From IMG/VR virus record IMGVR_UViG_3300035698_007215, positions 1 through 55,587 of that record: a DNA stretch of 55,587 bases; one strand, written 5' to 3'. Position 1 is the stretch's first letter. Each line of letters opens with the position of its first letter. The notes under the pieces are model-generated. The model did not search any database and had not been told where the DNA came from. It saw only the letters and a list, made by a program, of their open reading frames with translations. Shown here in pieces: positions 4,322-47,849 of this stretch. The DNA comes from a virus. The position numbers were made by a program, and so were the translations under genes.

Positions 4322-6169
4322 TTACGTAGGCTGTTGTGCAGCCTGCTGCCGCATCTGAGCTACTCCCTGCGTAGATGCCTGCTGGGACATATTCTGCATT
4401 ACCTGACGTACCTGTGCGTGCAGCATGGGGTTGCTACGCTTGAGCTGGATCAACTGCGACTTACGTGTAGTCTCGTCCATGCCCATTAGCTGCTGCGCCA
4501 TGTCCTGAGCCTGGTTCATGAGCTCCTCAGGAGTAATCGCACCTCCACCAGGTTGTCCTGCCATAGGCGCACCCACGCCAGCTACTGGCTGCGGAGCTGG
4601 TGCTCCTCCGGCGGCTGGAGGCGGCATAGCGCCACCCATCTGAGGTGGTGCCTGTTGCTGGCCCGCCTGTTCAGACATCTGCCGTAGTTCATCAGACTTC
4701 ATCTGGTCTTCCTCGAAGTCACGCTGCTGGTCCAGTTGGTCCTTCTGCTCGTCCATAATCTTACGAGCTTCATCCTTAGGATCAACACCGAGGAACGAGA
4801 AGGCTGTCTGCTTAGAGACCTGGTTAGCGGCCTGCATCTGTATGAGCATGCCCTTGCGCTCAAGATCGTCAGCGTATGTTACCGGCTGCAGCTGGGCACT
4901 TACCTCTTCCCAACCAAAGAAATTACCACAGGTCTGAACAACCCATGTGAGCCAGTCATTCATAGACGACGTGAACTGAGGCCATGTGGCCTGGAACAAC
5001 CGTAGTGCCGTCGGGGCCGCCTGCAGGGACATAGTACCCTGGAATAGCTCAACAGGAACACCAATGGCGTCCATGAGGTCAGCGTTGCCCTGCTTTATAA
5101 GCTGGAATGGAGAAAGCTGTACTCCTTCACCTGATAGTGCTTGGTACGACACTGGGAAGGGCACCGTGTGGTATCCAGTTGGGTTCCTGCGGTGCTCCTC
5201 AAGCAAACCATTGAGGTTCGTAGTCCATTGATTCATGTCATGGTGCATCATCGGATCGGCTACGCCAGCCTTCTCCGGAGTAATAACACGGAACGGAACT
5301 ATGTAGTCAAGTGCCAGCGCCTCGTTATAGCGCTTTAGCATCTGAACGTAGTACACGTCCTTGAATGCGCCGAACAGCCGGGGGATGCCCCAGCCACGGT
5401 TCTGCACACCAGCGATGGTAGGTTCCATCATGTGGTGCAGCGCTCCTTTATTAAACTTAAACATGTCTCCATCGATGGTAGCCTCGATCAACTCCCACGG
5501 AGTGTTGCGAATCCAGAACTCGTCTCCTTTACGCATCATCTTCTTAAAGTGCTCGTTGATGCGCCAGACGTACTCTGTCTCACCAGACACGAAGTTATGT
5601 GTCAGCTCAATCTCATGAGGATTCCAGCGGATAAGATGTATGCGTTCTTCATCCATAGACCTCAAGTCTTTATGCTCGTGTTTTGTTTCTTTGCCGCAGC
5701 GCACGCAGTATGCCGTGAACTTTTTCTTCTTAATGTCCAGCTTGAACTTGGGCACCTTGGCTATTGACACTGTGAAGTTGCACTCGTTGCAGATGAGTAT
5801 GCGATTGAACGGCATATACAATGAAGAAAATGAATTACCGTAGCAAAGCAGATCGTCTCCTACGTTTGCAGCTTTGTCCATGATCTTTAAAGCTTGATCA
5901 AGGAACTCGTGGTACTTCTCACGCTCTGCGTCAGAGATGTCACCAACAAACTCTACCTTCGTCAAGAAGTACCTGACAATCCGCTGCATGGCCGTCTTAA
6001 ACTGGCCACTCATAAGCCAAACGTGCTCGCATAAGCGTAGCACGTCTGACTTTGACTTAGGCATCGCTGTGGATGCGAAGTCACAGAACGGGTCTGGTAA
6101 GAGTGCGTGTCTGTTGCTTTTTGAACCGCCTGACTGGTAAGAGAAGAGTCCGTCTACGTCGGCATTCAT
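4322..6169 (-). CDS. Portal protein
   Basis: 615 residues. The portal forms the dodecameric ring at the capsid vertex for DNA entry and tail attachment. The evidence is length, the early LLPDPF segment, the central region rich in amphipathic helices with GWGIPRLF, and a Pro/Gly/Ala/Gln-rich disordered C-terminus (about residues 490-560). A CxxC pair at C127/C130 and another at C155/C158 form a zinc-ribbon-like insert near residues 127-158, which is unusual for portals. Its ATG overlaps the stop of the 53-residue gene (ATGA, 6166-6169), with GGAGG 8 nt upstream. I did not find a capsid protease or major capsid gene next to it, as expected in many phages. Confidence 0.82.
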   Translation of the reverse strand: MNADVDGLFSYQSGGSKSNRHALLPDPFCDFASTAMPKSKSDVLRLCEHVWLMSGQFKTAMQRIVRYFLTKVEFVGDISDAEREKYHEFLDQALKIMDKAANVGDDLLCYGNSFSSLYMPFNRILICNECNFTVSIAKVPKFKLDIKKKKFTAYCVRCGKETKHEHKDLRSMDEERIHLIRWNPHEIELTHNFVSGETEYVWRINEHFKKMMRKGDEFWIRNTPWELIEATIDGDMFKFNKGALHHMMEPTIAGVQNRGWGIPRLFGAFKDVYYVQMLKRYNEALALDYIVPFRVITPEKAGVADPMMHHDMNQWTTNLNGLLEEHRRNPTGYHTVPFPVSYQALSGEGVQLSPFQLIKQGNADLMDAIGVPVELFQGTMSLQAAPTALRLFQATWPQFTSSMNDWLTWVVQTCGNFFGWEEVSAQLQPVTYADDLERKGMLIQMQAANQVSKQTAFSFLGVDPKDEARKIMDEQKDQLDQQRDFEEDQMKSDELRQMSEQAGQQQAPPQMGGAMPPPAAGGAPAPQPVAGVGAPMAGQPGGGAITPEELMNQAQDMAQQLMGMDETTRKSQLIQLKRSNPMLHAQVRQVMQNMSQQASTQGVAQMRQQAAQQPT

Positions 6170-40116: not shown

Positions 40117-41637
40117 TTACCACTCCTCTACCTTGATCACTTCACCGATATCACCACACTTGCTTTTGATGAAATCTTCTTCATCCATGCCGTCCGGAGT
40201 AAGTATCCAGATAAGACAGTCTGCAAACGCTGCAACTGCTGGGCTGTCCTCATCAAGACGCTCACCATAACCGTCAGTAAAGTAAACAACGATACTAGGA
40301 TAGTCCTCAGACTCAAAGTTCTCATAGATATATTCAAGAGCAGGAGTAAACGATGTGCCGCCACGCCCAAAGAAGTTCTCAAGGGCCATGCCACGACGGT
40401 ACTTCTCCATCTTGGCCACATTGCAGTCACAATGAATCACATTAACCTCATCAGTATGCTGAGCAATAGCATCCACCTCAGACTCGACGTGAGACAGCTC
40501 AGCAGAACCCATGGAACCTGATGTGTCGATACAGAACGTGACACTGGTTGTGTTCTCGTACGTACGGCCCTTGAAGTAGCTCAGCCGACGGTTGAGTCGA
40601 AGCTTCGATACACGGCGCTCCTCAGAGAGCTTGGCACTGATCGCTGAGTTCATGCGCTGATACCACGGTACAATCGGCTGTGCTTCTGCCGACTCGATAA
40701 ACTGACCAACGTCACCTCCCATAAACCCACGAGATCTAATAGGCGTTGTGTTCTCCATAGCTTCCTTGATGATACTACGGATCTTGTCCTCACCAACCAT
40801 AGCGTCAGCCTTGCTGCCTGTAGCAACGATGTCCTTGGTAGGCACACCGCCGGTCTCGACGTCGATAGGATCTTTCTCTGTTGACTCTGCTTCTCCGTCA
40901 CCACCTGCGCCACCACCTTCACCTTCGGCCCCACCTTCGCTGTTAGCTTCACCTTTATTTTCTGACTCTTCTTCGTCATCCATGCCCATACCTTCAGCAC
41001 CATCAAGGTCGTCCCAGTTCTCAGGGGCGTCCTCAGTCATCTCCTTGGCAAGCTGCTGAAGCTGTTCCAGCATATCGTCCTCATCATCGCTGGGAGGGCA
41101 CTTCTCTTCAATCTTACGAAGAATCTCGATGGTAGGTGCGTAGCGCTCCAGCCCGAGCTTACGAATGTCGTAGAAAGGCCTATCTGAGTCCTGCAGTGCT
41201 CCAGGGAAACTGACAAAGCTGTCAGCTGCAGTCTCGATGGTCATGTAGTACAACGCACGGCCGGCTGTTGGCCCATACTTTAGTTCACAGTATTCACGCA
41301 GCTGGTGTCCCAGCCTGTCTCCAAGATGGCCACTCATTAAGTGACCAACGTTGTGCTCAACTACTCCGATACGTGCCAGCGGTGTCAGTTCATGATACTG
41401 GGAGAAGTTAACACCGAAGCATGGTTGATCGTCATCGTCGATAAAGAGAACTGAGTCCAGAGACTCATGCTCCACGCCGACCCGATTGAAACGATACAGA
41501 ATGAAACTGTACGCTGGGTCGATCATGGACTGTATGTGGTACAAGGCGGTGTGAAAATCACGCTCGCCCTGCGCCACGATCTCTGGGTCAGATTCTTTAC
41601 CAAACAATGACAGTATGTGACTGTTGTCTTCTGTCAT
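40117..41637 (-). CDS. VWA-domain protein with degenerate metallopeptidase motif (DUF2201-like)
   Basis: 506 residues. The N-terminal domain has EHNVGHLMSGH at 94-104, where an HExxH-type zinc motif would be expected but Glu is Asn, so peptidase activity is doubtful. A Gly/Glu/Ser-rich acidic linker covers about 195-265. The C-terminal VWA domain has the MIDAS motif DTSGSMG near 369, and GGTSF and TDGYG further on. VWA proteins of this kind act with a MoxR AAA+ ATPase, found here upstream at 42275-43618, to remodel or activate a partner. The start overlaps the upstream stop (ATGA). Confidence 0.82.
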   Translation of the reverse strand: MTEDNSHILSLFGKESDPEIVAQGERDFHTALYHIQSMIDPAYSFILYRFNRVGVEHESLDSVLFIDDDDQPCFGVNFSQYHELTPLARIGVVEHNVGHLMSGHLGDRLGHQLREYCELKYGPTAGRALYYMTIETAADSFVSFPGALQDSDRPFYDIRKLGLERYAPTIEILRKIEEKCPPSDDEDDMLEQLQQLAKEMTEDAPENWDDLDGAEGMGMDDEEESENKGEANSEGGAEGEGGGAGGDGEAESTEKDPIDVETGGVPTKDIVATGSKADAMVGEDKIRSIIKEAMENTTPIRSRGFMGGDVGQFIESAEAQPIVPWYQRMNSAISAKLSEERRVSKLRLNRRLSYFKGRTYENTTSVTFCIDTSGSMGSAELSHVESEVDAIAQHTDEVNVIHCDCNVAKMEKYRRGMALENFFGRGGTSFTPALEYIYENFESEDYPSIVVYFTDGYGERLDEDSPAVAAFADCLIWILTPDGMDEEDFIKSKCGDIGEVIKVEEW

Positions 41638-42088: not shown

Positions 42089-42282
42089 GCTGAACCCTCC
42101 ACAGTTGAATGTATCTTCAACATGATTGGTTCATTAACCTCCGGACACATAACCCAGTGAGTGTACGGTATGTCGTCCTGCATCATGGTGAACCTGGTGA
42201 ACTGCATTCCATCATGATTGCCGCCGCAACGAGAACACTTGCGTACGTTAACAGTCAGTACGTCCTTCTTTGGCTCAGTCAT
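42085..42282 (-). CDS. Small protein with CxxC knuckle (65 aa)
   Basis: The start is ATG 42282 with AGGTGA 5 nt upstream and an 8-nt overlap with the MoxR stop. CSRCGGNHDGMQF (about residues 16-28) is a zinc-knuckle-like motif, with a further Cys near 46. Not recognised. Confidence 0.67.
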   Translation of the reverse strand: MTEPKKDVLTVNVRKCSRCGGNHDGMQFTRFTMMQDDIPYTHWVMCPEVNEPIMLKIHSTVEGSA

Positions 42283-43618
42283 TAAAGTCACCTGCCTTCT
42301 TCTTACCACCACGACGACGCTTCTGCTCACTCCGCAGCTCTGTCACCATCTTATCGTGCTCATTGATGGCGTGACGTACACGCTCGAACACCTTTGTATC
42401 AGACAGATCACGTTCCAGGTCTTCGTATACACCATCGTTAGACTTGAACACCTTCTGGCACAAGTCAGTAACCAGAGTAGCGCCAGAGAGCTCAAGCAGC
42501 GTTGCAATGTGCGCAGACTGCGCATTGGTGAGCTCAGGAATACTAATGAGCGTGTTAGTGAGGTCCTGCACGGTTACTCCGATGAATCCCTGCTGGTCTG
42601 CTTCATTCCAGTACTTGAACAGATCAACCTGCTCTTTAGCCGACTTCTTAGTATCAGCAGCCCTCAGGATTCTATTCGCAGAGATAGGGTACCATTTGAC
42701 ATCGTCACCGTGCTTGATGTAGCTTTGGAACCGAGCCACGAGAGCATCAGCAGCCAGCGGGAGCTTATCCTTGCTGCCACGCTGCTTGCCCTTCTTAGCC
42801 AACCCTTGGAAGTGATCAGCGATAGAAGCGGTGAAGAGTTTCATCTTCAGGCTCTCATCGATGTCAGGATCAAGGTCCAGCTCCTGCCAGGTCTGGCCGA
42901 ACTGAATGTGCCAGAAGCGAGCTGAAGCCAGCTTCCAGATGTCCTTGTTCTCTTCCATGCGCAGGAACATACGACATGCCTCAGGATACTTGCCGGCCTC
43001 TTCCTGACTTGCCAGGTACGTCTGGTGCTCTTCAAAAGTCATGAACACCTTGAAGGTCTCAACACGGTCCATGACAGCAGCATCAACAGAACGACGTGAC
43101 GAGTAACACACGTCCTCTGGATTTGTGGTACCGATTATGAACACGCCGTTTGGCAGCTGCACGCCGCCGATCTGCCGGAAGGTGAGTGCGGCACGAACCT
43201 GATTCATCTGCGCCATGTTACCCGTCCAGATTTCATCGATGATCCATGGAATACACGTGCGTCCGTTGACTTGGTAACGTGGGTCCTGTGCCAGTTTCTC
43301 CGTAGGTATGAGTGTATCTATAACACCCTGCAACAACTTGGCGTTACCATCCTCGTCTTCGACAAGCTTTACTGCAGCAAGCAGTTCTTCCTGCTGCTGT
43401 GCTCCAAGACCGGGAACCACGATAGGAGGTGCACCAACAACTTCTGTACAGGTCTGTACGGTGATCTCTGACTTACCACAACCAGCTTCGCCTTCACAGA
43501 CGAGCGCCTTCTGAGATGGGTTGCCATACTTCAAGAACGCACCGATGCGCTTACGCCAGTCGGTAATGGTGATCTGTTCTGCCTGTCCAGCTTGTGATAC
43601 AATATCTTCCTTAGCCAT
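42275..43618 (-). CDS. MoxR-type AAA+ ATPase
   Basis: 447 residues from ATG 43618 (CAGGAGC upstream). Walker A is GEAGCGKS (43-50), Walker B is WIIDEIW (about 130), and sensor 1 is GTTNPED with a DRVE arginine region after it. MoxR ATPases are hexameric chaperones that, with a VWA partner, load metals or assemble complexes. The VWA partner is four genes downstream. Phages rarely carry both, and the function in infection is unknown. The C-terminus is Arg/Lys-rich (KRRRGGKKKAG). Confidence 0.82.
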   Translation of the reverse strand: MAKEDIVSQAGQAEQITITDWRKRIGAFLKYGNPSQKALVCEGEAGCGKSEITVQTCTEVVGAPPIVVPGLGAQQQEELLAAVKLVEDEDGNAKLLQGVIDTLIPTEKLAQDPRYQVNGRTCIPWIIDEIWTGNMAQMNQVRAALTFRQIGGVQLPNGVFIIGTTNPEDVCYSSRRSVDAAVMDRVETFKVFMTFEEHQTYLASQEEAGKYPEACRMFLRMEENKDIWKLASARFWHIQFGQTWQELDLDPDIDESLKMKLFTASIADHFQGLAKKGKQRGSKDKLPLAADALVARFQSYIKHGDDVKWYPISANRILRAADTKKSAKEQVDLFKYWNEADQQGFIGVTVQDLTNTLISIPELTNAQSAHIATLLELSGATLVTDLCQKVFKSNDGVYEDLERDLSDTKVFERVRHAINEHDKMVTELRSEQKRRRGGKKKAGDFND

Positions 43619-43653
43619 CTTTACTGCTCCTGTTTCTCTGTTTAAATGAAAAA

Positions 43654-43674
43654 GCCCCGGCACGATGCCGGGGC
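43654..43674 (-). terminator. Strong rho-independent terminator
   Basis: A 9-bp GC-rich stem GCCCCGGCA with its complement and a 3-nt loop is followed by TTTTTC on the minus strand. It lies 29 nt after the stop of the gene at 43703-44044, and the MoxR gene starts 36 nt beyond. It therefore separates the first two early genes from the MoxR operon unless read through. Confidence 0.9.
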
Positions 43675-43702
43675 GCAAAGGTTATCTCAACTACTGCTCT
43701 AC

Positions 43703-44080: not shown

Positions 44081-44260
44081 CTATGGCCGTCTAGTAGTAG
44101 TAAACTGTTTAGAAGGTTCATCTGGAGGAAGTTCGTTCTCTGCTGTGTGCACTGGCCTGTCGTGCGAATGCAGACGGCGTGAGAACATTGCATTGGGGTG
44201 GTAACGATTTCTGAAGTCTTTACGGCTCAGAAACTCTCGTGCATCTTTCATGTCGCTCAT
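44081..44260 (-). CDS. Small basic protein (59 aa), first gene behind an early-type promoter
   Basis: From ATG 44260 (AGGAGG 7 nt upstream) to TAG 44081. It encodes 59 residues rich in Arg, His and Pro (FLSRKDFRNRYHPN; FTTTRRP at the end). No motif is recognised. Immediately behind a near-consensus promoter, small basic proteins like this are often host-takeover factors, but this is inference. It contains the 11-nt repeat CCTGTCGTGCG (44156-44166) also found in the 31-kb operator. Confidence 0.65.
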   Translation of the reverse strand: MSDMKDAREFLSRKDFRNRYHPNAMFSRRLHSHDRPVHTAENELPPDEPSKQFTTTRRP

Positions 44261-44286
44261 GGCATATCCTCCTTAATCTGTAAAGG

Positions 44287-44315
44287 ATTATACAATGCGC
44301 AAGGGCATAAGTCAA
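44287..44315 (-). promoter_or_regulatory. Near-consensus sigma70 promoter overlapping the terL start
   Basis: On the minus strand, -35 TTGACT (44310-44315) and -10 TATAAT (44287-44292) are 17 nt apart, one mismatch from consensus. The predicted start is about 20 nt before the ATG at 44260. The boxes cover the terL ribosome site and its first seven codons, so strong firing would interfere with terL expression, as expected for an early promoter facing a late gene. Confidence 0.88.
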
Positions 44316-47300
44316 TTGAACCCTATACAAGCAAACGAGTACCTTACCCAGGCTCGTGACTTCGATTCCGTAGAAATTACCAGAAACGCAGAGCAAATAG
44401 GTGCATCCATCGCAACGCAGGTAGCACACTCCAGATCATTCTTACCGGCCCTTGGACAATATCTGTACTTCCGTGGTCGCCCGTTCCCTGAAGGCATGGC
44501 TAAGATGATGCAGCCTGCCTTCAAAATGGACCTTAGCCCAATGAGTGTGTGGAAGTGTGGTCGTCAGGTTGGTAAGTCACTAACTTTGGCCGCCAAAAGT
44601 ATTATGTTAACTGCTGTGTTACCGTACTTCAGTACACTTACTGTTACTCCTCAGTTTGAAATGACTCGCCGCTTTTCTACTAACTATGTAAACCCTCTCA
44701 TAAATGAATCTCCTGTCCGTGCCGAGTTAACTGGTATTGGTTACTCAAACAATGTTTTACAAAAAACGTTCAAGAATAACTCAATGATGCATTTCTCATT
44801 CGCATTCCTTGACTGCAACAGAATACGTGGTTTGGCGATAGACCGTATGCACATCGACGAGTGCAGCGTCAAGTTTTCATCGATACAAACCGTTGATGGT
44901 GAACGACTTATAGGCTACAATCTTAAAAAAGGCAATAAACTTCTTGCATTCAACGAACAAGAGTGTATAGTTACAGATACGGTCATGGATGTTGTATGCA
45001 AGGGGCTGAGACCTTCGTGGAAGATCACTCTTGTAGACGGCCGTACCTTAACGTGCACAGCTAACGAAAGACTACGTACTGACCGAGGTTGGGTTTATTT
45101 GCAGGAGATACTGGATTATGCTTATGAACGACGTACAGGTAACAAAGTTGAACCCCGTCAATGGGTTACTCAGGGAGGCAGTCCTTGGCATGATGCTAGG
45201 GGACGGCTCGATGCAGTGGACGCAGAAGAAGGACCTCAGCTGGTCGGGGCGGCTGTACATGACACACGGAGCTTGTCAGGAGGCATACTGCCGCCACAAG
45301 GCTCACCTATTGAAGGATTATGTCAACGTACCACCAAAGATAGTACCCAACGGGGGTTGGGGGCACGAAAGCTGTATTTTCAGCACGCTGAACTCCCCAG
45401 CATTCGACTTCTTGTTGCCTCTGTTCTACCGGATAGACGGCAGGACGAAGAGACTCAAGAAGGTGGTTACCAAGGAGCTGGTAGCTCAGCTGACTCCTAC
45501 GAGCTGGGCGTACATGTTCATGGACGACGGCAACCTCAGCAAGTCACAGACATCAGCAACGATCTGCACCCACAGCTTCAGCCAAAAGGGTGTACAACTA
45601 CTGATAAACCGTCTTGCTCGGCTCGGCATCCACGCCCAGATGAAACACGACAACCATATGAAGAAGGCCAAAAAGGGCGGCTGGTACATCACAATGAACG
45701 CCGAGGCGACGAGAGAATTCATAACGATGATCAAGCCATACCTCCACGAAAGCATGGCGTACAAGGGCGAGATAACCATGAGGCCGGTAGAGCTGGTGAA
45801 CTGCCAGTTCTGCGGGAGTCCCGTGCCGATGGGTCCTCGTCAAGACGAACACATGGCGGTCTGCGGCTCGGCCGAATGCCAGAAGCAGCGCCACAAGATC
45901 CTGAACGACAAGTACAGGGCTCAACCCGGGAAGCAGGACGAGATCAACGAGAAGGTCAGGGCACGTTACTGCGCCAACCTGGAAGAGAGTCGGCGAAAGA
46001 AGAGAGAGAGTATGCAGCAGTATATGGAGGATCCGAAGTATCGTGCACGACAGAACAAACTGAAGAGAGAACGTCGAGCCAAGAAAAGGATAGCCAACCC
46101 GACACCTACCGAGACGGTATCCTGCAGCTTCTGCGGGGACCCTATCCAGCGGAGAATCCGGAAGAACGCTGCACAGACAGTGGCCTGCTCGAAGACTGGC
46201 TGCAAGAAGGAGAAGCACAGGCTAGTCTCAATTCTCTCTCGCCAGCAGAAGAAGACAGCCACCTCACCCCTGTAGAGATTTTGTCTATAGAGTACGTAGG
46301 TGAGACTGAAGTGTGGGATGTAGAAACTGAAAACCACCACACGCTACTCGTTAACGGAGTTGCCGTACACAACTGCCAGGACATAGATCCAGACTTCATT
46401 CCTATCATTGCACAGACAATGGGCCGCTCCCGATACCGACTGCAGGACTTCAGCGGCACACCAAAAACTTTCGACAACACCATGGAGATACTATGGAAGC
46501 AGTCCTCCCGTGCTGAGTGGTTGATACCCTGCAGCTGCGGTCACTGGAATGACCCAAATATAGAAGCAGACGCATTAAAGATGATAGGTATCGAAGGACT
46601 CGTGTGCGCCAAATGCAGTAGGCCACTTGATGCAAACTCCGGTCACTGGCACCACATGAACACTGATGGTAACAAACGAGTTGAGTTCCCTGGTTACCAC
46701 GTACCTCAGTTCATCCTGCCTTTCCATTACGAAGACAAGCGTAACTGGAAAATTATTCTTGATGCTGTCAAAGGTAACGTTGCTCCTTATATTCTTTACA
46801 ACGAAATTATGGCAGAGTCTTACGACACAGGGTCCAAGCTCGTTACAGAAACTGACCTGAAGAGTGCTTGTAAGATCCCGGCTAACCTCAAGGATTACGA
46901 AGATGCCAAGAGCCGAACACGACATTATATCTTTACTGTACTTGGCATCGACTGGGGTGGTCGTGGTGCCACCGGTATTTCTATGACTAAGGCCGCCGTC
47001 ATGGGCATGCGTCCTGATGGCCACATGGAGTTAATCTATGGTGAAAACATGTCAACTCTCATCGATGAAGCAGCCGAAGTTATTAGAGCAATCCAGATAT
47101 TCAACGACTTCTCCTGCCATATGCTTGCCCACGACGCAGGTGGCAGCGGTGGTATGCGTGACGTGCTCCTATCAAATAGCAGGTTCCCTATGCAAAAGGT
47201 CATGCCATTCGTCTACGTCCGTGCTTGGGCGAATAACCCTATCACCTTCCACCCCGGTACCGAAATCCAGCCTAAAGCCTACTACTCTCTGGACAAAGCT

Positions 47301-47666
47301 CGGTCGCTGGCTCTCATGTCCAATATGATCAAGTCTGACTGGATGCTGTTTCCGAGATGGGAGACCTGCCACGAGCTGATCTCTGACTTCCTTGCTCTCG
47401 TAGAAGAAAAGAACGAGACCAAGAGGGCAGGCGATCTATATCTTATCACTCGTGCTGAGAACTCCTCAGACGACTTTGCCCACGCAGTTAACTTCGCCTG
47501 TATGTGTGCCTTCCATAAGCAGGATAAGTATCCAGACCTTCTACAACGTGTTGATCAAGCTCGCTTTGAACTGAACGAGCAACAGGTTAGTGCACTTGCA
47601 CCAAACCCAACTCAGGCTGACTGGGAGATGGCCGACCTCGATGAGGACGGCTACGAGGTACTATAG
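44295..47666 (+). CDS. terL: Terminase large subunit (gpA/GTA-like), interrupted by an intein
   Basis: 1123 residues before splicing and about 619 after. The N-extein holds Walker A GRQVGKS (89-95) and ends in the Walker B sequence MHIDE (E189). The C-extein begins C694-QDID, has a zinc-type CSC (746-748) and CAKC (771-774) insert as in lambda gpA, and carries the nuclease domain with GIDWGG (D886), AHDAGGSGG and a late DDFAHA. It is the ATP-driven motor and headful/cos nuclease for DNA packaging. The start is ATG 44295 with AAAGGA 7 nt before. Its 3' end overlaps the convergent small gene by 6 nt. No plus-strand promoter was recognised. Confidence 0.93.
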   Translation: MRKGISQLNPIQANEYLTQARDFDSVEITRNAEQIGASIATQVAHSRSFLPALGQYLYFRGRPFPEGMAKMMQPAFKMDLSPMSVWKCGRQVGKSLTLAAKSIMLTAVLPYFSTLTVTPQFEMTRRFSTNYVNPLINESPVRAELTGIGYSNNVLQKTFKNNSMMHFSFAFLDCNRIRGLAIDRMHIDECSVKFSSIQTVDGERLIGYNLKKGNKLLAFNEQECIVTDTVMDVVCKGLRPSWKITLVDGRTLTCTANERLRTDRGWVYLQEILDYAYERRTGNKVEPRQWVTQGGSPWHDARGRLDAVDAEEGPQLVGAAVHDTRSLSGGILPPQGSPIEGLCQRTTKDSTQRGLGARKLYFQHAELPSIRLLVASVLPDRRQDEETQEGGYQGAGSSADSYELGVHVHGRRQPQQVTDISNDLHPQLQPKGCTTTDKPSCSARHPRPDETRQPYEEGQKGRLVHHNERRGDERIHNDDQAIPPRKHGVQGRDNHEAGRAGELPVLRESRADGSSSRRTHGGLRLGRMPEAAPQDPERQVQGSTREAGRDQREGQGTLLRQPGRESAKEEREYAAVYGGSEVSCTTEQTEERTSSQEKDSQPDTYRDGILQLLRGPYPAENPEERCTDSGLLEDWLQEGEAQASLNSLSPAEEDSHLTPVEILSIEYVGETEVWDVETENHHTLLVNGVAVHNCQDIDPDFIPIIAQTMGRSRYRLQDFSGTPKTFDNTMEILWKQSSRAEWLIPCSCGHWNDPNIEADALKMIGIEGLVCAKCSRPLDANSGHWHHMNTDGNKRVEFPGYHVPQFILPFHYEDKRNWKIILDAVKGNVAPYILYNEIMAESYDTGSKLVTETDLKSACKIPANLKDYEDAKSRTRHYIFTVLGIDWGGRGATGISMTKAAVMGMRPDGHMELIYGENMSTLIDEAAEVIRAIQIFNDFSCHMLAHDAGGSGGMRDVLLSNSRFPMQKVMPFVYVRAWANNPITFHPGTEIQPKAYYSLDKARSLALMSNMIKSDWMLFPRWETCHELISDFLALVEEKNETKRAGDLYLITRAENSSDDFAHAVNFACMCAFHKQDKYPDLLQRVDQARFELNEQQVSALAPNPTQADWEMADLDEDGYEVL
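44862..46373 (+). mobile_element. Intein in terL (504 aa) inserted within the Walker B motif
   Basis: The intein runs from C190 (TGC 44862) to N693 (AAC 46371-46373), with Cys694 as +1 residue. Excision joins HIDE to CQDID, an intact terminase DECQD motif. Block A is CSVKFSSIQTVDG. Block B-like is GRTLTCTANERLRTDRGW, where the usual TxxH His is Glu. Block F is EVWDVETENHHTLLVNG, and block G ends in AVHN followed by Cys. The splicing halves total ~120 residues. The ~385 residues between them are Arg/Gln/Glu/Gly/Ser-rich with no visible fold and are read in a different frame from the endonuclease gene at 45118-46275. Confidence 0.9.
45118..46275 (+). CDS. LAGLIDADG homing endonuclease nested out of frame in the terL intein
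   Basis: 385 residues in the +1 frame relative to terL. It has two LAGLIDADG motifs, LLREAVLGMMLGDGS (17-31) and ELVAQLTPTSWAYMFMDDGN (120-139). A following segment (HSFSQKGVQLLINRLARLGI, then IKPYLHESMAYK) is typical of the LAGLIDADG_2 (PF03161) family. The C-terminus has two Cys4 fingers of the form CxFCG(S/D)P...C...CxK. It has its own AGGAG about 10 nt before ATG 45118 and a TAG just before the intein's C-terminal half. It should cut an intein-less terL allele and drive intein homing. Asp, Asn and Lys codons are almost all GAC, AAC and AAG, unlike the rest of the phage. Confidence 0.88.
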   Translation: MLMNDVQVTKLNPVNGLLREAVLGMMLGDGSMQWTQKKDLSWSGRLYMTHGACQEAYCRHKAHLLKDYVNVPPKIVPNGGWGHESCIFSTLNSPAFDFLLPLFYRIDGRTKRLKKVVTKELVAQLTPTSWAYMFMDDGNLSKSQTSATICTHSFSQKGVQLLINRLARLGIHAQMKHDNHMKKAKKGGWYITMNAEATREFITMIKPYLHESMAYKGEITMRPVELVNCQFCGSPVPMGPRQDEHMAVCGSAECQKQRHKILNDKYRAQPGKQDEINEKVRARYCANLEESRRKKRESMQQYMEDPKYRARQNKLKRERRAKKRIANPTPTETVSCSFCGDPIQRRIRKNAAQTVACSKTGCKKEKHRLVSILSRQQKKTATSPL

Positions 47667-47849
47667 CATTAGCGCCGAACGACGATCCAGTCCGTACTTC
47701 TCGATAGTCCAGTCAACGAACACTTCCGGAGTATTACCGGCGGTGTAGGCGGCCATAAGTCGCTCGTCGTCAGCGCAATCATTAGTCCCTATCCCGCATT
47801 CCTCTTTAAGTTTATCCTCAACTTCGCCAATCCACTCGTCATAGTCCAT
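47661..47849 (-). CDS. Small acidic phage protein (62 aa)
   Basis: The start is ATG 47849 with AAGGTG 7 nt upstream; the longer frame to 47966 lies in the preceding gene. Its pattern (DYDEWIGEVEDKL at the start, then DDERLMAAYTAGNTPEVFVDW) resembles a widespread small phage family (DUF5419-like, to my recollection). Function unknown. Its stop overlaps the convergent terL end by 6 nt. Confidence 0.7.
   Translation of the reverse strand: MDYDEWIGEVEDKLKEECGIGTNDCADDERLMAAYTAGNTPEVFVDWTIEKYGLDRRSALML

What the first reader, a model, noticed from the sequence alone, without database searches (positions are those of the whole stretch)
44862..46373. Homing endonuclease encoded out of frame inside a terminase intein (dual-coding intein)
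Seen: terL is one open frame of 1123 codons holding a complete set of intein ends (C190 to N693, +1 Cys). Between the splicing halves lies a 385-residue LAGLIDADG endonuclease in the +1 frame, with its own AGGAG/ATG at the end of the N-half and TAG at the start of the C-half. The terL frame has no stop across 386 endonuclease codons, where 386 x 3/64, about 18, would be expected. The endonuclease never has a T-ending codon before AAN, AGN or GAN, and uses about 16 AAC to 1 AAT and 12 GAC to 2 GAT. Known: inteins normally carry their endonuclease in frame, fused to the splicing domain. Inference: the endonuclease gene invaded or slipped as a separate cistron and is now held under double constraint, so homing enzyme and splicing are made separately from one DNA.
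Basis: partly seen in the sequence, partly recalled or inferred. Interest (0 to 1): 0.95.

Follow-up and report, generated by a model that had tools for sequence, protein, structure and literature searches.

The report
Dual-coding terminase intein with hidden endonuclease
A phage's DNA-packaging gene carries a self-splicing protein insert (an intein) whose DNA-cutting 'homing' enzyme is written in a different reading frame of the same DNA, and three other phage contigs show the same frame overlap, which means selection keeps the host message readable through the hidden gene.

Summary
TerL (44295-47666) is one open frame with an intein, C190 to N693 (44862-46373), inserted just after the Walker B Asp-Glu. 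A 385-aa I-SceI-type LAGLIDADG endonuclease (45118-46275) lies inside it in the terL+1 frame. The terL frame has no stop across the endonuclease; shuffling its own synonymous codons gives a mean of 10 and a minimum of 2. It is not an assembly slip. A syntenic relative about 50% identical (L046), a more distant TerL with a dead endonuclease remnant (L127), and a third TerL at a different insertion site (L141) all keep the same +1 phase and a stop-free host frame. L046 has one frame change that shifts both frames together. Fractured helicase inteins (Ymer, ES) show the expected number of stops. Selection acts on openness only: terL-frame identity fits a 'no stop' rule, and AlphaFold gives a HINT fold with a disordered linker. 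Best reading: a spliced intein and a separately initiated endonuclease come from one DNA. Out-of-frame endonucleases in open host frames are known (ShiLan domain, PMC11855218), but without splicing domains. An unread preprint may overlap. New variant of a known kind.

The parts
44295..47666 (+). terL, terminase large subunit precursor, one open frame of 1123 aa
   Evidence: C-extein matches phrog_675 terminase large subunit E=1.5e-30, GpA_ATPase-like N part
44295..44861 (+). N-extein (Walker A GRQVGKS to Walker B HIDE)
   Evidence: alignment with intein-free TerLs
44862..46373 (+). intein in terL frame, C190 to N693 (504 aa), +1 residue Cys694; intein-free relatives read DE[VI]QD here
   Evidence: Intein_splicing PF14890 E=2e-4 (below Pfam's cutoff) and intein_Cterm TIGR01443 above its cutoff; empty sites in 15 relatives
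44862..45158 (+). N-terminal splicing half (intein residues 1-99); block B reads TANE instead of TxxH
   Evidence: AlphaFold pLDDT 62-84, Foldseek to DnaB mini-inteins 1.3-1.5 A over 85 residues
45103..45107 (+). AGGAG, presumed ribosome-binding site of the endonuclease, 10 nt before the ATG; AGGAG and ATG are conserved in L046, and AAGGAG-ATG is present in L141
45118..46275 (+). LAGLIDADG_2 homing endonuclease gene, 385 aa, in terL+1 frame, ends TAG
   Evidence: PF03161 E=3e-27; I-SceI/I-WcaI fold, E=2.6e-11 to 1e-10
45184..45207 (+). first LAGLIDADG motif LGMMLGDG (Asp aligned with the I-SceI GD motif)
   Evidence: alignment
45505..45531 (+). second LAGLIDADG motif WAYMFMDDG
   Evidence: alignment
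45159..46253 (+). terL-frame linker over the endonuclease: stop-free, hydrophilic, predicted disordered
46254..46373 (+). C-terminal splicing half (intein residues 465-504, EVWDVETENHHTLLVNGVAVHN); HEN stop TAG at 46273-46275 lies inside its start
   Evidence: 94% aa identity to L046 over the last 33 codons
46374..47666 (+). C-extein (CQDIDPDF...)

Best explanation
This is a mobile intein in a phage terminase whose homing endonuclease is a separate, overlapping cistron in the +1 frame. The ribosome reads terL straight through, giving a 1123-aa precursor. The intein's two splicing halves fold together across a long unstructured linker, excise the 504-aa intein and join DE to CQD, restoring Walker B. 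A second initiation at AGGAG...ATG 45118 makes a free I-SceI-like endonuclease from the same DNA. That enzyme would cut intein-free terL alleles, and repair copies in the whole intein with its hidden gene. Natural selection on the host protein removes any stop in the terL frame, so endonuclease codons are chosen to avoid TAA, TAG and TGA out of frame. When homing is no longer useful the endonuclease decays (L127) while the terL frame stays open. Shown: architecture, stop avoidance, recurrence in four viral genomes. Inferred: splicing, separate translation, cleavage and homing.
For: Zero stops against 10.1 expected, 0/10,000 shuffles. The same in L046 (0 vs 8.3), L141 (0 vs 20.7) and the L127 remnant (0 vs 5.5), all in the same +1 phase. 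T-ending codons before AA/AG/GA are 0/73, 0/50, 0/67 and 0/15, against 41/78 and 33/77 in fractured-helicase HENs. Evolving the window HEN under HEN-only constraint to the L046 distance gives about 12 stops, never 0 in 300 runs. L127 has a stop and a deletion in the HEN with TerL intact. The SD/ATG is conserved in L046 and also present in L141. The HEN model matches I-SceI/I-WcaI; the intein model has a HINT fold with a disordered middle. Intein-free alleles carry an empty site at exactly DE^[VI]QD.
Against: No expression, splicing or cleavage data. The block-B His of canonical inteins is Glu in the window and L046 and Thr in L127, so splicing activity is not assured. L046 has one frame change (5602-5733) that shifts both frames together, either an assembly indel or real damage. 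Only four members were found, all from metagenomic contigs, none cultured.
Confidence: 0.85

Rival explanations
1. Assembly or sequencing error: an ordinary in-frame intein-endonuclease with one indel near each junction.
For: Inteins with this endonuclease family in frame do exist (KLEP7, Gostya9, Miltoncostaea).
Against: An in-frame HEN would show the usual number of stops in the shifted frame (in-frame examples L037, L039 and L042 do: 20, 23 and 16 in under 190 codons; the GC-rich L038 has 1). The window shows 0 in 386. Three independent contigs have the same phase.
Confidence: 0.02
2. The element is a step towards a fractured gene: the splicing halves can already act in trans, and the open terL frame is a leftover that will be lost.
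For: In Pectobacterium phages Ymer, Abuela and Amona and in E. coli phages ES and AN_ECEAS the helicase intein is split, an overlapping LAGLIDADG_2 HEN sits out of frame between the halves, and the helicase frame is full of stops.
Against: Those HENs are in the -1 phase, not +1. In the window's family the terL frame has been kept stop-free over a divergence of about half the amino acids, so cis reading is still required.
Confidence: 0.06
3. The HEN is expressed as a fusion with the N-half by ribosomal frameshifting rather than by its own start.
For: The HEN frame is open back to 45052, overlapping the N-half.
Against: AGGAG/ATG is conserved in L046 and an even better AAGGAG-N6-ATG is present in L141; no frameshift is needed to make TerL.
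Confidence: 0.07
4. The terL-frame stretch over the HEN is itself a functional folded domain and the HEN is secondary.
For: terL-frame identity between the window and L046 is 0.41, slightly above 0.37 expected under a no-stop rule.
Against: 26 of 200 simulations reach that value; AlphaFold pLDDT is about 30 over it; most of it is deleted in L127 and absent from the first L141 intein.
Confidence: 0.03
5. A group I or II intron carrying a HEN, with the host frame open by accident.
For: I-SceI-type enzymes are typically intron-encoded (established knowledge).
Against: No Rfam match in 44200-47700 even at E<0.5; intein ends and HINT fold are present; the open frame is not accidental.
Confidence: 0.01

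Closest known systems
ShiLan domain and Pacc40 insertion (out-of-frame HNH endonuclease in phage DNA methylase; Arsenault, Gosselin and Gogarten 2025, PMC11855218)
   Same: A homing endonuclease hidden in another frame inside a conserved phage gene whose own frame stays stop-free; presumed homing.
   Different: No splicing domains; HNH not LAGLIDADG; third frame; no detectable ribosome-binding site; the insert is thought to stay in the protein. Here intein ends and a HINT fold flank the HEN, and AGGAG precedes its ATG.
Canonical LAGLIDADG inteins with PF03161-type endonuclease (e.g. KLEP7 RNA ligase L037, Gostya9 DNA polymerase L039, L042)
   Same: Same endonuclease family between intein splicing halves.
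   Different: There the endonuclease is in the host frame, fused to the intein.
Fractured genes: split inteins with an interleaved homing endonuclease (literature known from memory; seen here in Pectobacterium phage Ymer and E. coli phages ES/AN_ECEAS)
   Same: HEN is a separate out-of-frame cistron overlapping both splicing halves.
   Different: Host frame broken by stops (10-13 over the HEN), so trans-splicing is needed; phase is -1; no stop avoidance.
I-SceI / I-WcaI (monomeric two-motif LAGLIDADG endonucleases)
   Same: Fold and the two LAGLIDADG motifs.
   Different: Intron-encoded; the window HEN has a C-terminal extension of about 165 aa with CxxC pairs.
'Actinobacteriophage Inteins: ... 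Non-Canonical Architecture' (bioRxiv 10.1101/2025.01.02.630785) and Gorbalenya 1998 'Non-canonical inteins'
   Same: Cited by PMC11855218 for overlapping reading frames in actinobacteriophages.
   Different: Neither is held here, so they could not be read; priority for an out-of-frame HEN inside an intein cannot be excluded.

Membership tests
Intein (HINT-domain protein-splicing element) | N-terminal nucleophile (Cys/Ser/Ala) at residue 1, C-terminal Asn, +1 Cys/Ser/Thr | tested here: met
   C190, N693, C694; C/HN/C in L046 and S/HN/C in L127
Intein (HINT-domain protein-splicing element) | HINT fold from N and C halves | tested here: met
   PF14890 E=2e-4 (below Pfam's own cutoff), TIGR01443 above cutoff; Foldseek to Ssp/Npu DnaB mini-inteins 1.3-1.5 A
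Intein (HINT-domain protein-splicing element) | Block B TxxH | tested here: not met
   TANE in the window and L046, TGNT in L127, TSDH in L141. Some inteins are known to lack this His (from memory), so it is common but not strictly defining
Intein (HINT-domain protein-splicing element) | Precise insertion in a conserved site with intein-free alleles | tested here: met
   DE^CQD versus DE[VI]QD in 15 relatives
Intein (HINT-domain protein-splicing element) | Protein splicing activity | not testable with these tools
   needs expression
Canonical homing intein | Endonuclease in frame with the splicing domain | tested here: not met
   HEN in terL+1 frame
LAGLIDADG_2 homing endonuclease (I-SceI type) | Two LAGLIDADG motifs with catalytic Asp, I-SceI fold | tested here: met
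   PF03161 E=3e-27; GD and MDDG motifs aligned with I-SceI; I-WcaI/I-SceI E 2.6e-11 to 1e-10
LAGLIDADG_2 homing endonuclease (I-SceI type) | Cleaves the intein-free allele | not testable with these tools
   needs cleavage assay
Fractured gene / split intein with interleaved HEN | Host gene split into two ORFs by stops | tested here: not met
   terL frame has 0 stops; helicase frame in Ymer 13, AN_ECEAS 10
ShiLan-type out-of-frame endonuclease insertion | No splicing domains in the host-frame reading | tested here: not met
   HINT halves present

The most novel reading that the evidence does not exclude
A lineage of inteins has turned its homing endonuclease into a permanently overlapping +1-frame gene. 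The lineage has been kept long enough to diverge to about 50% identity, and appears in different terminase families and at different insertion sites (after Walker B in the window, L046 and L127; before Walker B in L141). The only detectable selection on the second frame is against stop codons, so mobility and splicing are uncoupled as proteins but locked together as DNA.
Probability: 0.6. Interest if true: 0.85.

Novelty: new variant of a known kind. Interest (0 to 1): 0.76.

Why it matters
Inteins are taught as fusions of a splicing domain and an endonuclease in one polypeptide. Here the two appear to be separate proteins written in two frames of the same DNA. That would allow separate dosage of splicing and homing, and it gives a natural test bed for overlapping genes: one frame under full protein selection, the other only under 'no stop'. 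It is also a possible intermediate between ordinary inteins, out-of-frame endonuclease insertions and fractured genes with split inteins.

Tried and rejected
Direct HEN and TerL single-sequence scans of viral contigs and the phage collection found no close relative; alignment-based scans were needed. 80 TerL relatives (L046-L125) were screened: among those with both flanks readable, only L046 has the intein. Genome contigs with the HEN found nothing; with the intein C-half it gave 12 cellular inteins, none with an out-of-frame HEN in what I read. L135-L139 TerL inteins have a long linker without any endonuclease I could recognise in any frame. An early codon-shuffle result that terL-frame identity is significantly conserved did not survive a control that keeps ancestry, so I do not claim conservation of the linker sequence. 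Intron: no Rfam match. Lactobacillus phage CL2 portal/HNH: annotated as adjacent genes, not analysed further. The most relevant prior literature (bioRxiv 2025.01.02.630785, Gorbalenya 1998) is not held.

Full report
Observation. terL runs open from 44295 to 47666 (1123 aa), and a 385-aa ORF at 45118-46275 lies inside it in the +1 frame. The terL frame has no stop over those codons. Shuffling synonymous codons within the endonuclease gives 10.1 stops on average and never fewer than 2 in 10,000; using the phage's own codon usage gives 23; the third frame has 27, as expected. The T-ending rule it lists is the same fact seen another way.

What the parts are. The 385-aa protein is a LAGLIDADG_2 endonuclease (PF03161, E=3e-27). 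It aligns by sequence with I-SceI, including both LAGLIDADG motifs, and its AlphaFold model (pLDDT 75) matches I-WcaI and I-SceI first. A C-terminal extension of about 165 aa has CxxC pairs. The terL frame holds an intein: C190, a C-terminal HN693 and Cys694, with intein C-terminal and splicing-domain matches. The AlphaFold model of the 504-aa intein is confident only at residues 1-99 and about 465-504; Foldseek matches that part to DnaB mini-inteins at 1.3-1.5 A. The roughly 365 residues that overlap the endonuclease have pLDDT near 30. The block-B histidine is replaced by Glu, a caution about splicing activity.

Site. TerL relatives without the intein read DE[VI]QD where the window reads DE^intein^CQD, directly after Walker B. 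Unspliced TerL would have its ATPase core interrupted, so (inference) the terL frame must be readable to the end.

Relatives. L046 (IMGVR_UViG_3300028388_002326) is a syntenic relative of the window phage with TerL 48-52% and HEN about 54% identical. The same intein is at the same site, the HEN is again in terL+1, and the terL frame is again free of stops. One frame change at 5602-5733 shifts both frames by the same step; it is a single indel in the contig, real or assembled. L127 (IMGVR_UViG_3300044627_004253) has a TerL only 21-29% identical in its exteins but the same site; its HEN remnant is 46% identical and lies again in terL+1. That remnant has an in-frame stop and a large deletion, while TerL (896 aa) stays open. 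L141 (IMGVR_UViG_3300035698_013900) has a 1213-aa TerL with two inteins. The second, just before Walker B, contains a 337-aa HEN in terL+1 with zero terL-frame stops where 20.7 are expected; the first is a HEN-free paralogue. All four therefore have the same phase, and three of them carry an extensive overlap under stop avoidance.

Selection. T-ending codons before AA/AG/GA number 0/73, 0/50, 0/67 and 0/15 in the four HENs, but 41/78 and 33/77 in fractured-helicase HENs and 33/92 in the window's own TerL. Starting from the stop-free window HEN and evolving it under HEN-only constraint to the L046 distance produces about 12 stops and never zero in 300 runs, so openness has been maintained since divergence. 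Amino-acid identity in the terL frame over the HEN is 0.41, within what a bare no-stop rule gives (0.37+-0.04; 26 of 200 runs reach it). The stretch is kept open but not measurably kept in sequence. An earlier shuffle that suggested otherwise ignored shared ancestry and is not relied on.

Expression. AGGAG stands 10 nt before ATG 45118. AGGAG, spacing and ATG are conserved in L046, and L141 has AAGGAG six nt before its ATG. The HEN stop TAG lies inside the GTAGAGAT of the C-half in both the window and L046. Separate initiation is therefore the likeliest route; frameshifting is not needed.

Contrast. In Pectobacterium phages (Ymer, Abuela, Amona) and E. coli phages ES/AN_ECEAS an overlapping LAGLIDADG_2 HEN also sits out of frame between intein halves of a helicase. 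There the phase is -1 and the helicase frame carries 10-13 stops, so the gene is fractured. In KLEP7, Gostya9 and Miltoncostaea the same endonuclease family is in frame.

Known work. [quoted passage not shown] That paper cites a preprint on non-canonical intein architecture in actinobacteriophages (bioRxiv 2025.01.02.630785) and Gorbalenya 1998 for overlapping frames. Neither could be read, so the idea of an out-of-frame HEN in an intein may already be in print. I therefore rate this as a new variant of a known kind.

Noticed in passing
L141:236-3877: TerL with two paralogous inteins; the first (692-1237) has lost the endonuclease, the second (1283-2674) holds it in the +1 frame. Extein between them is only about 15 aa.
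   Followed up: partly
L128, L129, L130, L040, L045: Helicase genes of Pectobacterium phages (Ymer, Abuela, Amona) and E. coli phages ES/AN_ECEAS are fractured by a split intein, with a LAGLIDADG_2 endonuclease overlapping both halves in the -1 frame; annotated only as separate genes.
   Followed up: partly
L135-L139: Another group of TerL inteins with a HEN-free linker of roughly 230 aa, no Pfam match for the linker and no endonuclease recognised in other frames.
   Followed up: partly
window 44862-45158: Block-B His of the intein is Glu (TANE), Thr in L127, His kept in L141.
   Followed up: no
window 40117-41637 and 42275-43678 (- strand): A VWA/DUF2201 protein (PHROG labels it HNH endonuclease) lies near a protein with a P-loop-like GEAGCGKSE that looks like a MoxR-type AAA ATPase; a phage-borne MoxR-VWA pair is conceivable.
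   Followed up: no
L046:5602-5733: One frame change shifts both the terL and the HEN frame together; assembly indel or a recent mutation.
   Followed up: partly
window, whole: The phage has few close relatives in the collections: most large ORFs tested have no Pfam match; DNA polymerase, DnaB-like helicase, SbcC-like and portal proteins are recognisable.
   Followed up: partly
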